From: Pantoea coffeiphila
Lineage (GTDB): Bacteria; Pseudomonadota; Gammaproteobacteria; Enterobacterales; Enterobacteriaceae
Assembly (NCBI RefSeq): GCF_016909495.1
Contig: NZ_JAFBFW010000003.1
Span: forward strand, 620,001-684,000
Length of the DNA stretch: 64,000 nt
Reading direction: 5' to 3'
Below the pieces are notes generated by a model. That model saw only the letters and a program-made list of their open reading frames with translations, did not search any database and was not told the DNA's origin. Shown here in pieces: positions 11,855 through 43,527 of this stretch; the stretch's first letter is position 1, and each line of letters opens with the position of its first letter. Position numbers and translations under genes: made by a program.

Positions 11855-11926
11855 AGCTGATGAGCTGATGAGCTGATGAGCTGATGAGCTGATGAGCTGA
11901 TGAGCTGATGAGCTGATGAGCTGATG
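11855..11926. repeat. Nine perfect tandem copies of AGCTGATG
   Basis: Seventy-two bases of an uninterrupted 8-bp repeat in the spacer between galP and metK, ending 27 bases before structured repeat A1. Uninterrupted arrays of this kind change copy number by slippage. Its distance from galP (about 390 bases) makes direct promoter control unlikely. The unit is related by chance or descent to the nearby GAGCTGATG at about 11713. Confidence 0.97.
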
Positions 11927-11953
11927 GACGTTGGTTACTATGGAGATTGCGCT

Positions 11954-12152
11954 GGCTGGCTGTTCCCCCGCCCGGATGGTCCTCACGCCACGCTTTGCGT
12001 GGTGCCTTCGCTACGTTCGTCAGCCTGTCGGACCGCCAAAGACGGGCCGTCCATGGCCCGGCTTTGTCTTTCGTCCGCGTCCATGCGGCCGAATCCTGGC
12101 TTCCTTTCTCCGCTCAGCGCTGCGGATTATCCGGTCGGGTGAACAGTCAGCC
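11954..12152 (+). repeat. Structured intergenic repeat A1 (family A)
   Basis: A 199-bp element. Outer arms 11954-11976 and 12130-12152 are self-complementary at 20 of 23 positions. Inside are hairpin P2 (CCACGC-TTT-GCGTGG, 11988-12002), helix P3 (CAAAG, then CGGGCC-GTCCAT-GGCCCG, then CTTTG; 12037-12066) and P4 (CCGC-GTCCAT-GCGG, 12075-12088). The block CAGCGCTGCGGATT precedes the right arm. The same core occurs in A2, A3 and A4, but with different arm sequences. The 161 bases between A1 and A2 (12153-12313) hold nothing I can name. Confidence 0.85.
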
Positions 12153-12313
12153 TGCTGTGCTGCTTCCGTGATGCATGCCAGATAAGATAGACAGCGAGCA
12201 CGACGCTCGATGGAGGGGGGCAGGTTGCAGTCCAGATATGCCTGAACACCTGCAATAAACGTTCTGAAGGGAATAGTTGTTTGTAAAACCGCGACTCTGA
12301 AGGTCATAGGGAA

Positions 12314-12510
12314 CAGCCTCTGCCGCGGGTACCGGGCAATCCGCAGCGCTGAGACGTAGGCAGCAGGCCAGGAGATGCCAGCAGGGAAGCTGGCGTCAGG
12401 CGAAGCCGGGCAGGACGCCCGTCTTCGCCGGTCCGGGAGGCCGGATGCCGAAGCCGAAGGCACCACGCGAAGCGTGGCGCGAGGACGCCCGGTACCCGCG
12501 GCAGAGGCTG
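12314..12510 (-). repeat. Structured intergenic repeat A2 (family A, inverted)
   Basis: A 197-bp element in the opposite orientation to A1. Its outer arms, 12314-12337 and 12487-12510, are a perfect 24-bp inverted repeat (starting CAGCCTCTGCCGCGGG). P3 is GGCGAAG (12399-12405) pairing with CTTCGCC (12423-12429), continued by CGGGC-AGGAC-GCCCG (12407-12421). P4 is GCCAGC-AGGGAA-GCTGGC (12377-12394). It lies just downstream of the metK terminator. Its core is almost identical to that of A4 except in the paired segments. Confidence 0.88.
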
Positions 12511-12539: not shown

Positions 12540-12571
12540 CAAAAAAAACCGCCATCTAAAAGACGGCGGCT
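12540..12571 (-). terminator. metK rho-independent terminator
   Basis: In the metK direction, GCCGCCGTC pairs with GATGGCGGT (two G-T wobbles) and is followed by eight T residues. It lies about 55 bases past the metK stop codon. Confidence 0.85.
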
Positions 12572-12623
12572 TAATCACGCTGGAGGGCAGCCCGAAAGCA
12601 CCCTCAGCACAGCGGCAGAAAAC

Positions 12624-37321: not shown

Positions 37322-37506
37322 GGAATCTCCGAGATGCCGCCGCAGGCTGTAACCCTTGAACCCTTGGTTCAAGGTGAGTATGCCGTCGTAACCATCAGGC
37401 TTCCCGGACGGGCCGGGCATGCACACAGGTTACAGAGCGCCACACTCTGTTTGGTATGAAATATCGGCTCAGGGGACTGGCCCGCTTGCAAACATCTCAG
37501 AGAAAT
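37322..37506 (-). ncRNA. ssrS: 6S RNA
   Basis: A 185-base RNA that binds sigma-70 RNA polymerase holoenzyme by mimicking an open promoter and represses transcription in stationary phase. The 5' end (ATTTCTCTGAGATGTTTGC, complement of 37488-37506) and 3' end (GCATCTCGGAGATTCC, complement of 37322-37337) match the E. coli RNA closely and pair with each other to close the long stem. The conserved ACCCTTGGTTCAAGG type segment is at about 37352-37372. It lies between zapA and fau, its usual place. Confidence 0.96.
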
Positions 37507-41190: not shown

Positions 41191-42393
41191 ATGCAAACAT
41201 TTGATGTCATCGTTGCCGGTGGCGGTATGGTCGGTCTTGCGGTGGCCTGTGGCCTGCAGGGGAGCGGCCTGCGCGTGGCGGTGCTTGAGCGCGAAGCGCC
41301 GGTTGCCGCTGCGGCAGATGCGCCCCATGCGCTGCGCGTTTCGGCGATTAACGCCGCCAGCGAGAGGTTGCTGCAGCATCTTGGCGTCTGGAGCACGATC
41401 CTTGCCACGCGTGCCAGCGCCTATCACGGCATGGAAGTCTGGGATCGCGACAGCTTTGGTCATATCGCCTTTGACGATGAGCAGCAGGGGCTGTCGCATC
41501 TGGGGCACATTATTGAAAACCGGGTGATCCACCAGGCGCTGTGGCAGCGGGCTGAGAGCCTGAGCGATATCACCCTGATTTCCCCGGCTGAACTGCAACA
41601 GGTTGCTTTTGGCGACAACGAAGCGTTTGTCACGCTGAAAGACGGCAGCATGATGACCGCTCGTCTGCTGGTGGCCGCCGATGGCGCGAACTCGTGGCTG
41701 CGGAACAAAGCGGATATCCCGCTCACCTTCTGGGATTATGAGCATCATGCGCTGGTGGCCAATATCCGCACCGAAAAACCGCATGATGCGGTGGCCCGGC
41801 AGGTATTCCACGGCGAAGGTATTCTGGCCTTCCTGCCGCTGAGCGATCCGCATCTTTGTTCTATTGTCTGGTCTTTACCGCCGCAGGAAGCCACTCGTCT
41901 GCAATCAATGCCGGAAGAGGTATTCAACCAGCAGCTGTCGGTGCATTTTGATCTGCGTCTGGGGCTGTGCGAGCTGGAAAGCGATCGTCAGGTCTTCCCG
42001 CTGATGGGGCGCTTTGCGCGCAGTTTTGCCGCGCACCGTCTGGCGCTGGTGGGCGATGCTGCCCACACTATCCATCCGCTGGCGGGCCAGGGGGTGAATC
42101 TTGGCTTTATGGATGCGGCGGAGTTGATTGGTGAGATCCGGCGCCTGCATCAGCAGGGTCGGGATATTGGTGAGCATCTGTATCTGCGTCGTTACGAGCG
42201 CAGCCGCAAACATAGCGCGGCGCTGATGCTGGCCAGCATGCAGGGTTTCCGCGAGCTGTTTAACGGTGATAATCCGGCGAAGAAGCTGCTGCGTGATGTC
42301 GGGCTGGCGCTGGCGGATAAACTGCCGGGCGTGAAGCCGAAGCTGCTGAAGCAGGCGATGGGGCTGCATGATTTACCCGAGTGGTTGCGTTAA
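41191..42393 (+). CDS. ubiI: FAD-dependent 2-octaprenylphenol hydroxylase
   Basis: A 400-residue FAD monooxygenase (formerly VisC) that hydroxylates C5 of the ubiquinone precursor. FAD motifs are VIVAGGGMVGLAVACGL at residues 5-21 and LVGDAAHTIHPLAGQGVNLGF near residue 285. It forms an operon with ubiH and pepP. Its stop codon lies inside a 27-bp direct repeat shared with 42729-42755, just before structured repeat A3. No classical terminator is visible immediately downstream. Confidence 0.95.
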   Translation: MQTFDVIVAGGGMVGLAVACGLQGSGLRVAVLEREAPVAAAADAPHALRVSAINAASERLLQHLGVWSTILATRASAYHGMEVWDRDSFGHIAFDDEQQGLSHLGHIIENRVIHQALWQRAESLSDITLISPAELQQVAFGDNEAFVTLKDGSMMTARLLVAADGANSWLRNKADIPLTFWDYEHHALVANIRTEKPHDAVARQVFHGEGILAFLPLSDPHLCSIVWSLPPQEATRLQSMPEEVFNQQLSVHFDLRLGLCELESDRQVFPLMGRFARSFAAHRLALVGDAAHTIHPLAGQGVNLGFMDAAELIGEIRRLHQQGRDIGEHLYLRRYERSRKHSAALMLASMQGFRELFNGDNPAKKLLRDVGLALADKLPGVKPKLLKQAMGLHDLPEWLR

Positions 42394-42417
42394 TGGGTAG
42401 AGGCTCTGGTTAGTTCC
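42391..42417 (+). repeat. Direct repeat, left copy (at ubiI stop)
   Basis: A 27-base segment starting with the ubiI stop codon (TAATGGGTAGAGGCTCTGG...) that recurs at 42729-42755 with two substitutions. The two copies bracket repeat A3 and are 338 bases apart. Confidence 0.9.
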
Positions 42418-42488
42418 GATTCTGGTATGGAGCTGAATTTTGTGTGGGGGGGTTAACCGTGTTGTTTTCTGGATGCGGTGAGCACGCT

Positions 42489-42683
42489 AACCGGCGGCTC
42501 CCTCGCCCGAGCGTCCTCGCGCCGCGCTTTGCGCGATGCCTTTACTTCACTCGTCAGCCTTCGTACCGGTGCAGACGGGGCGTCCTGCCCCGGCTGCCCC
42601 TTTCGCCAGCGTCCTGCTGGCTCATACGAGCTTCCTCATTCCGTTCAGCGCTGCGGATTGCCCGTTCAAGGGAGCCGCCGGTT
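42489..42683 (+). repeat. Structured intergenic repeat A3 (family A)
   Basis: A 195-bp element. Its outer arms, AACCGGCGGCTCCCT at 42489-42503 and AGGGAGCCGCCGGTT at 42669-42683, pair perfectly over 15 bp. P2 is CGCGC-TTT-GCGCG (42523-42535), where an A-T pair of A1 is replaced by G-C. P3 is GCAG, then CGGGGC-GTCCT-GCCCCG, then CTGC (42571-42597). P4 is GCCAGC-GTCCT-GCTGGC (42605-42621). Same core order as A1, different arms. Confidence 0.87.
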
Positions 42684-42728: not shown

Positions 42729-42755
42729 TAATGGGTTGAGACTCTGGTTAGTTCC
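42729..42755 (+). repeat. Direct repeat, right copy
   Basis: Second copy of the 27-base segment at 42391-42417, differing at two positions. It lies between A3 and A4. Confidence 0.9.
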
Positions 42756-42810
42756 AACGGGGTAACTTCGTTTTATTCCTGATGAAAAAGCCAGCACATA
42801 GCCGGAAAGA

Positions 42811-43013
42811 TGACCCACCGCAGGGCCAGACGGGCAATCCGCAGCGCTGAGGTGGAGGCATCAGGCCAGGAGACGCCAGCAGGGAAGCTGGCGTCAGGCG
42901 GGGTCGGTACATGGATGTATCGTCTCCGCCGGTCCGGGAGGCCGGATGCCGTAGCCGAAGGCACCACGCGAAGCGTGGCGCGAGGACCGACCGGCAGGCG
43001 CAGCGGCGGGTCA
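42811..43013 (-). repeat. Structured intergenic repeat A4 (family A, inverted)
   Basis: A 203-bp element opposite in orientation to A3. Outer arms begin TGACCCACCGC at 42811 and end GCGGCGGGTCA at 43013; they pair at about 19 of 25 positions. P3 is GGCGGGG (42897-42903) with CTCCGCC (42924-42930), continued by CGGTAC-ATGGAT-GTATCG (42905-42922). The core is nearly identical to A2, but P3 and the arms differ while still pairing. Confidence 0.85.
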
Positions 43014-43527
43014 GCGATCGTATAATTGGCAGCGCATCAAAATCAATCCCATGTGATACCCGCAACTAACTCAGCCCTAATTGTCCGTTGTTTTCCAGTT
43101 ACTTTTTCCTCGTTTTAACGTCCCTTGCACCAATGGTGCACCCGCCGCCCCATCATTGTGCTTCGTTTGAATTATTCTAATTTAACGCTCGCAATCGCAT
43201 TACTTTTAATAATGCGATAAGAAAATTCCCGGAGTCGTTTTTTATACATCGAATGCGGAATCTTTGCGATTCATCTGCGTTAAAGGTTGTTTATTGTTGT
43301 TTTTGTATGCATTTATTCAATTAAGTAGCGATTGATACTGGTGGTGAGTGCGGGGGCTTTATTGCCGAACTGTGATTTCGACCCCTTTTAACTTATGGTT
43401 AATTGCCATTTTCGGTGGTAACTTCAAAGCCAAGATAACGTTTGCGTCAGGCCGCTAACGAGCGGTAAACGGGCGCGTCAATCACCCTGCATCCACAAGG
43501 ATGGCGGACAGACAGCACAGGAAGACT
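43014..43527 (+). promoter_or_regulatory. gcvTHP upstream region
   Basis: About 510 bases of AT-rich sequence leading to gcvT. It contains the palindrome TGCACCAATGGTGCA (43126-43140) and a CTAAT element at 43177-43181, the core of GcvA sites. E. coli gcvTHP is controlled by GcvA, GcvR, Lrp and PurR over a long upstream region, which this resembles in length and composition. No coding frame is convincing here. Confidence 0.5.

What the first reader, a model, noticed from the sequence alone, without database searches (positions are those of the whole stretch)
11954..12510. A ~200-bp repeat family whose outer arms change sequence but remain self-complementary
A1, A2, A3 and A4 share a core (hairpins P2, P3 and P4, and CAGCGCTGCGGATT), yet each has private outer arms. 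In A2 they are a perfect 24-bp inverted repeat, in A3 a perfect 15-bp one, and in A1 20 of 23 positions pair. Ordinary mobile elements keep the same terminal repeats in every copy. Here pairing is conserved instead of sequence, which implies selection for a folded RNA or single-stranded DNA, or a copying mechanism that renews the palindrome. I do not recognise it as REP/BIME, ERIC, or another enterobacterial repeat; the length and multi-hairpin layout differ.
Basis: partly seen in the sequence, partly recalled or inferred. Interest (0 to 1): 0.9.

Follow-up and report, generated by a model that had tools for sequence, protein, structure and literature searches.

The report
Paired CsrA-type RNA hairpin repeats
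These repeats are copies of a known but unexplained bacterial RNA fold that probably catches the regulator protein CsrA; this genome holds dozens of them, mostly as face-to-face pairs of two types, with an outer stem that keeps its pairing while its letters change.

Summary
Each copy has a variable outer stem (P1) around two hairpins with A(N)GGA(Y) loops, the CsrA-binding motif; a 2014 paper already predicted CsrA binding. New here, as far as my searches went: 84 near-full copies at 49 intergenic sites in the loci examined; 33 sites are inverted pairs, always minus then plus, mostly type I with type II. Covariation is strong (score 0.512; shuffled 0.154). The GGA hairpins keep G-U far more than A-C mismatches (21:1 and 83:7), a sign of selection on the sense-strand fold; P1 does not (107:93), as expected of DNA-level renewal or of a need on both strands. 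One genome (G002) departs from this contrast. Half-copies next to full copies, and private 7-9-bp tandem arrays 12-44 bp beyond many 3' ends, suggest repeated local copying. Best explanation: a dispersed, orientation-independent family of CsrA-binding RNA modules that grows by local duplication. CsrA binding, transcription and renewal of P1 are inferred, not shown.

The parts
11951..12155 (-). Element A1 (type I): outer stem P1 (arms 12129-12155 and 11951-11977) around the core 11978-12126
   Evidence: RF01731, 59.8 bits at 12012-12098; 23 of 27 P1 positions pair; coordinates
12070..12093 (-). A1 hairpin P2, loop AUGGAC
12037..12066 (-). A1 hairpin P3, loop AUGGAC
11988..12002 (-). A1 hairpin P4
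12156..12313 (.). Spacer between A1 and A2; no promoter-like site found in it by the consensus scan
12314..12510 (+). Element A2 (type II arms): perfect 24-bp P1 (12314-12337 with 12487-12510) around the core
   Evidence: RF01731, 44.5 bits at 12369-12435; arms; fold
12374..12397 (+). A2 hairpin P2, loop AGGGAA
12399..12429 (+). A2 hairpin P3, loop AGGAC
12460..12480 (+). A2 hairpin P4
42485..42690 (-). Element A3 (type I), second pair: core 42512-42657, arms on either side with a perfect 15-bp run
   Evidence: RF01731, 47.2 bits at 42563-42627; arms; coordinates
42605..42621 (-). A3 hairpin P2, loop AGGAC
42568..42600 (-). A3 hairpin P3, loop AGGAC
42809..43015 (+). Element A4 (type II): core 42838-42988, imperfect arms
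   Evidence: RF01731, 54 bits at 42867-42936; arms; coordinates
42872..42895 (+). A4 hairpin P2, loop AGGGAA
42897..42930 (+). A4 hairpin P3, loop region CAUGGAUG
11855..11926 (.). Nine copies of AGCTGATG just beyond the 3' end of A1; such private tandem arrays recur beside other copies

Best explanation
These are members of the Rfam TwoAYGGAY RNA family, multiplied in this enterobacterial lineage as inverted, mostly heterotypic pairs in intergenic DNA. Read in its sense direction, each copy folds into an outer stem (P1) that presents two hairpins with A(N)GGA(Y) loops, a double docking site for one CsrA dimer. The pair runs minus then plus, so read-through transcription from either side yields exactly one sense copy: the unit works in either orientation, and leaky transcripts carry a module that titrates CsrA or marks that transcript. 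Shown: the family match, the pairing and its covariation, the GGA loops, the sense-strand bias in P2 and P3, the paired layout. Inferred: CsrA binding, transcription, any effect. P1 keeps its pairing without preferring G-U to A-C, so it is probably renewed at the DNA level (hairpin-templated correction, local duplication) or needed as a palindrome on both strands; this step is inferred.
For: RF01731 at all four copies; same clan as CsrB. GGA in the loop of the first hairpin in 82 of 84 and of the second in 84 of 84 own copies, with no GGA demanded; CANGGANG or CAGGANG fits 207 of 213 P2 and 209 of 213 P3 (whose hairpin finder demanded GGA). G-U:A-C is 21:1 in P2, 83:7 in P3, 107:93 in P1. Covariation score 0.512 against 0.154 shuffled. 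33 of 49 clusters are minus-plus and none plus-minus; 30 of 34 minus-plus neighbours join core class I with II. CsrA binding was predicted for this family in PMC4333381 (passages). For P1 renewal: orthologous copies carry paired arm changes; 78 mismatch-free stems where independent sites predict 61 (211 of 213 elements); half-copies; tandem arrays beyond the 3' ends.
Against: No CsrA binding or expression data. No promoter-like site was found inside either pair of the window, and the other pairs were not scanned; metK has its own terminator-like site before A2, so read-through may be rare. Genome G002 departs from the strand contrast: P1 34:6, P2 0:0, P3 0:2; its copies are largely tandem amplifications, so few changes there are independent. 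A wobble bias would also arise from a folded sense-strand DNA. A long GC-rich P1 might tolerate any single mismatch, which would also give symmetry. P1 over-dispersion is mild. 15 of 49 clusters are single elements.
Confidence: 0.45

Rival explanations
1. A BIME-like or MITE-like non-autonomous mobile DNA element: the hairpins are recognition sites for a transposase acting on single-stranded DNA, and CsrA plays no part.
For: Inverted heterotypic pairs, intergenic places with many convergent genes (21 of 49), patchy presence in the genus (12 of 36) and class (18 of 274). In G146 a roughly 0.6-kb composite with an 85-bp inverted repeat at its ends (94%) recurs at a second locus.
Against: No PF01797 (RAYT/IS200-type) in G000, G002, G004, G011 or G035, all rich in the repeat, while G026 with 64 matches has no RF01731. 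No shared terminal repeat among own copies. Sites are shared with G011 and G013, and three absences checked in G000 carry arm remnants, so look like losses. Only one transposase family was tested.
Confidence: 0.2
2. A structural 3'-UTR element that works on both strands: P1 and its hairpins protect mRNA 3' ends or stop read-through between neighbouring genes, as proposed for REP sequences. The GGA loops are conserved for another reason.
For: 21 of 45 clusters with determined flanks are convergent, against 8 of 43 gaps in the window, which include the two pairs. P1 symmetry fits a need on both strands. Strong folds.
Against: 24 of those 45 clusters are tandem or divergent. The loops keep A(N)GGA(Y), which a mere stabiliser does not need. 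The strand bias of P2 and P3 shows one functional sense.
Confidence: 0.2
3. Passive hairpin DNA: palindromes that grow and rewrite themselves by replication slippage and template switching, with no function for the host.
For: Half-copies, varying element numbers at orthologous sites, tandem arrays clustered beyond the 3' ends, symmetric mismatches in P1, a deleted core that left its arms (read by eye).
Against: Sense-strand bias and invariant GGA loops in P2 and P3; the same two-hairpin core in other gammaproteobacterial families.
Confidence: 0.15

Closest known systems
TwoAYGGAY RNA (Rfam RF01731)
   Same: Two successive hairpins with A(N)GGA(Y) loops closed by a short GGA/UCC helix, and a variable external stem; scores over the gathering cut-off.
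   Different: In own copies the Rfam model mostly matches only its core (positions about 43-131); here the element is a high-copy, paired repeat with two arm types, an invariant CAGCGCTGCGGATT and an extra hairpin P4. I saw no such description in the passages read.
CsrB/CsrC, RsmX/Y/Z sponge RNAs
   Same: Same Rfam clan as CsrB; GGA loops fitting the CsrA motif (recalled), predicted for this family in PMC4333381.
   Different: CsrB is one locus here. These are many dispersed units with two such hairpins each, and no promoter was found in the two pairs scanned.
REP/BIME with RAYT
   Same: Intergenic palindromes in inverted pairs of two subtypes (Y and Z in BIMEs, recalled), with local growth.
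   Different: About 200-nt multi-hairpin units instead of short simple palindromes (recalled); no PF01797 match in the own genome.
MITEs
   Same: Dispersed, non-coding, with inverted ends in some distant composites (G146).
   Different: Own copies share no common terminal inverted repeat; no target-site duplication was established.

Membership tests
TwoAYGGAY (RF01731) | Score at or above the gathering cut-off of 43 bits | tested here: met
   59.8, 47.2 and 54 bits and 44.5 bits for A2 in a local scan; the whole-window scan alone listed three of the four
TwoAYGGAY (RF01731) | Two successive hairpins with AYGGAY-like loops | tested here: met
   GGA in the loop in 82 of 84 and 84 of 84 own copies
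TwoAYGGAY (RF01731) | Rfam's external stem (about model positions 8-33 with 135-161) | tested here: inconclusive
   Own copies have a stem in that place, but most Rfam alignments stop at model positions 43 to 114-131
CsrA-binding sponge RNA (CsrB/Rsm type) | Several hairpin loops with the CsrA motif | tested here: met
   CANGGANG or CAGGANG in 207 of 213 P2 and 209 of 213 P3; the consensus is recalled
CsrA-binding sponge RNA (CsrB/Rsm type) | Binds CsrA and lowers its activity | not testable with these tools
   Predicted in PMC4333381; needs a bench test
CsrA-binding sponge RNA (CsrB/Rsm type) | Free-standing sRNA gene with its own promoter and terminator | tested here: inconclusive
   No promoter-like site inside the two window pairs; consensus scan only, 2 of 33 pairs
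REP/BIME mobilised by RAYT | A RAYT (Y1 transposase, PF01797) in the genome | tested here: not met
   0 matches in G000
REP/BIME mobilised by RAYT | Inverted pairs of two subtypes | tested here: met
   33 of 49 clusters minus-plus; 30 of 34 minus-plus neighbours core class I with II
REP/BIME mobilised by RAYT | Short (about 20-40 nt) simple palindrome as unit (recalled) | tested here: not met
   About 200-nt unit with several helices
MITE | Common terminal inverted repeats in all copies | tested here: not met
   Arms of own copies differ; composites with inverted ends seen in G146 only
MITE | Target-site duplication | tested here: inconclusive
   Absences examined were scars or unalignable
ERIC | ERIC consensus sequence | not tested
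   Set aside because RF01731 matches

The most novel reading that the evidence does not exclude
A self-spreading regulatory repeat: dispersed, orientation-independent CsrA-binding modules form a distributed sponge of over 160 GGA hairpins, while their outer palindromes are continually rewritten by a hairpin-templated DNA copying process that also leaves half-copies and private 7-9-bp tandem arrays. One element would be under RNA selection inside and DNA-level renewal outside.
Probability: 0.25. Interest if true: 0.82.

Novelty: new variant of a known kind. Interest (0 to 1): 0.56.

Why it matters
I saw no experimental function for TwoAYGGAY in the passages read. A genome with more than 80 natural variants, paired and rich in compensatory changes, makes the CsrA hypothesis directly testable and would tie a repeat family to a global regulator. 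The contrast between helices (wobble bias inside, none outside) also suggests a simple sequence test that separates RNA selection from palindrome renewal.

Tried and rejected
Mobilisation by a RAYT/IS200-type transposase: set aside as a present cause, since PF01797 has no match in G000; other transposase families were not searched. Phage origin: no match of A4 in the phage collection at E 1e-3. Clean empty site at metK-galP: of 19 relatives looked at, G013 and G011 hold the pair, G001 a degenerate remnant (read by eye), 14 show other intergenic sequence in which I saw no element by eye (not aligned), and in 2 galP was not within reach. Three G013 loci without a held G000 counterpart were traced: two G000 sites show arm remnants, and the third a full type II copy plus two type I arms without a core (remnants read by eye). 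No target site could be read.

Literature: 'TwoAYGGAY' is held in 7 papers, 5 listed. Searches on CsrA with repeat terms, Pantoea with REP, CsrA with TwoAYGGAY, Rfam with Erwinia and repeat terms and TwoAYGGAY with repeat and inverted showed no description of such pairs. The library lacks most subscription journals, and the additional files of PMC2864571 were not seen.

P4's 5:97 ratio was not used as evidence for the antisense strand, because it comes largely from a few conserved A-C positions (distinct states 3:7). In ortholog comparisons the P1 stems of 12 of 32, 10 of 30 and 6 of 25 pairs could not be aligned and were left out, and some elements share one partner (for example L078 and L079 both with L222), so the pair counts include a few paralogues.

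Full report
WHAT IS THERE. The window is G000 contig C3, 620001-684000. It has four copies: A1 (minus) and A2 (plus) between galP and metK, and A3 (minus) and A4 (plus) at about 42.5-43.0 kb. The gene names are my reading of the ORF translations, not a search result. A2's perfect 24-bp arms are confirmed. A2 folds at z -10.6 and A1 at z -4.8.

FAMILY. A cmscan of the window finds RF01731, TwoAYGGAY, at A1, A3 and A4; a local scan also finds it at A2 (44.5 bits, cut-off 43). Its clan, CL00106, is also the clan given for CsrB. The 2010 discovery paper marks TwoAYGGAY as probably RNA and probably not cis-regulatory (PMC2864571, passages). The RMfam paper (PMC4333381, passages) matched the CsrA-binding motif to TwoAYGGAY, predicted that the RNA sequesters CsrA, and calls the external stem not well conserved. 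So the family and the CsrA idea are both published.

SCALE AND LAYOUT. The own genome has 76 RF01731 matches, with 150 of 181 candidates scored. A profile from 48 clean copies finds 124 matches in the own loci held, 84 of them near-full. This is a lower bound: the match at the end of contig C1 was not fetched, and another full copy turned up later in L225. The 84 form 49 clusters: 33 minus-plus, 1 minus-minus-plus, 11 single plus, 4 single minus, no plus-minus. By core class, 30 of 34 minus-plus neighbours are I with II and 4 are I with I; by arms, 25 are I/II, 8 have one undetermined partner and 1 is I/I. The classes come from pattern rules and are rough. With my own simple gene caller, all 49 clusters are intergenic. 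Flanking genes are convergent at 21, tandem at 18, divergent at 6 and undetermined at 4 clusters. For comparison, 8 of 43 gaps in the window and 33 of 106 in the loci held are convergent; both backgrounds include the element sites.

COVARIATION. I aligned 50 of the 84 copies with MAFFT and counted a structure of P1, the closing helix, P2, P3 and P4. 87.5% of cells pair (66.7% shuffled), 42 of 55 pairs have double changes (34.4 shuffled), 531 cells have double changes (162.5 shuffled), and the covariation score is 0.512 (0.154 shuffled; slid controls at most 0.100). None of 500 shuffles reached any of the five measures. The structure was read from A2, which favours it somewhat, and related sequences can exceed shuffles. 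In P1, 20 of 21 pairs have double changes. RNAalifold also pairs the TCC and GCG of the conserved AATCCGCAGCGCTGA with GGA and CGC near the 3' arm.

TWO KINDS OF EVOLUTION. A G-C pair can decay to G-U or to A-C; on a strand that must fold, G-U is tolerated better. I counted both with a scoring that treats all mismatches alike, in 213 near-full elements (G000 84, G011 49, G013 49, G002 27, G035 4). P2 is 21:1 and P3 83:7 (distinct position-states 8:1 and 12:4); P1 is 107:93 (distinct 35:34). So the GGA hairpins are kept as a sense-strand fold, and P1 not detectably so. By genome, over the first 24 pairs, P1 is 24:41 in G000, 16:24 in G011, 18:14 in G013, but 34:6 in G002. G002 also shows no bias in its hairpins (P2 0:0, P3 0:2). 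The contrast thus rests on the G000-G011-G013 clade. G002's copies include tandem amplifications and give few independent changes. P1 mismatches are mildly over-dispersed (78 mismatch-free stems, 61 expected with independent sites; 211 of 213 elements), which fits occasional correction, but weakly. The copies are related, so raw counts are not independent.

LOOPS. With no GGA demanded, GGA is in the loop of the first hairpin in 82 of 84 and of the second in 84 of 84 own copies; in one of the two exceptions the hairpins were shifted by one. CANGGANG or CAGGANG fits 207 of 213 P2 and 209 of 213 P3; that finder demanded GGA. CANGGANG as a CsrA/RsmE consensus is recalled.

ORTHOLOGS AND LOCAL GROWTH. 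At metK-galP the closest genomes (93% identity over a 641-base metK stretch) keep the pair with other arms: GCCGCGGG/CCCGCGGC in G000, GCGGTGGG/CCCACCGC in G011, GCGGCGGG/CCCGCCGC in G013. The right arm is present once, twice and three times respectively (read by eye). I found 32, 30 and 25 matched element pairs for G000-G011, G000-G013 and G011-G013; G011 and G013 were sampled only, and a few pairs are paralogous. For G000-G013, P1 shows 30 double Watson-Crick changes and 60 single-side changes; P2 shows 47 and 14, P3 74 and 28. Exchange between copies could cause part of this. Extra left halves lie on the inner side, extra right halves on the outer side; in L049 the right halves are nearly identical and the left halves degenerate. 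Element numbers at matched sites differ, for example five in L185 (G013) against two in L073 (G000). Absences checked look like losses; in L225 two arms stand face to face without a core (by eye).

DISTRIBUTION. 12 of 36 genomes of the genus sample, own included, match at E 1e-4; seven have 26 or more (at most 57 candidates scored per genome). In the class 18 of 274, own included, have a match (at most 9 scored per genome). Minus-plus pairs also occur in G004, G014, G032, G217 and G327 and, by eye, in G146 and G277.

TANDEM ARRAYS. Of 17 intergenic arrays with a 6-10-bp unit in the own loci, 14 lie within 300 bp of an element, where 26.5 of 56.2 kb of intergenic sequence lies (p 0.006). Ten of the 14 lie 12-44 bp beyond the 3' end, each with its own unit. 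AGCTGATG at 11855-11926 is one.

TRANSCRIPTION SIGNALS. No promoter-like site lies inside either window pair. Terminator-like sites include metK's own (12546-12572 minus) and two in A1 read in the antisense direction. Any sense RNA would come from read-through or from promoters that the scan cannot see.

INTERPRETATION. The most economical reading is a CsrA-type RNA module carried in an inverted pair, which yields one sense copy whichever way it is read through. Two types in one pair also avoid a long perfect palindrome. Half-copies and tandem arrays suggest that the stem stalls or re-primes DNA synthesis and is rewritten now and then. Binding, transcription and rewriting remain to be shown.

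Noticed in passing
window 11855-11926; G000 C2:565-657, C2:3617-3692, C2:50926-50983, C5:461078-461191, C7:111383-111424 and others: Private 7-9-bp tandem arrays lie 12-44 bp beyond the 3' end of ten elements, each with a different unit.
   Followed up: partly
L080, L081 (G002): Tandem arrays of about 456-543-bp units, each with one element on the same strand, with one element on the opposite strand beside the array.
   Followed up: partly
L049, L058, L064, L098: Partial tandem copies of only the left or only the right half of the element beside full copies; in L058 the left halves get more worn with distance.
   Followed up: partly
L140/L161, L171 (G146); L136, L158 (G300); L152, L153, L154, L165 (G327): Composites of about 0.5-0.7 kb that hold TwoAYGGAY matches recur at several loci in other gammaproteobacterial families; the one in G146 has an 85-bp inverted repeat at its ends, and an outer hairpin such as TTTTCTTGGACAAGCAAGAAAA is seen in G327.
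   Followed up: partly
window 42392-42420 and 42733-42760: A roughly 25-bp near-repeat (TCTGGTTAGTTCC and neighbours) lies outside A3 and again in the A3-A4 spacer; perhaps a worn arm (by eye).
   Followed up: no
window 37322-37506, minus strand: 6S RNA (RF00013), 133.7 bits.
   Followed up: no
G026: 64 matches to the Y1 transposase family PF01797 in one genome of the genus that has no RF01731 match.
   Followed up: no
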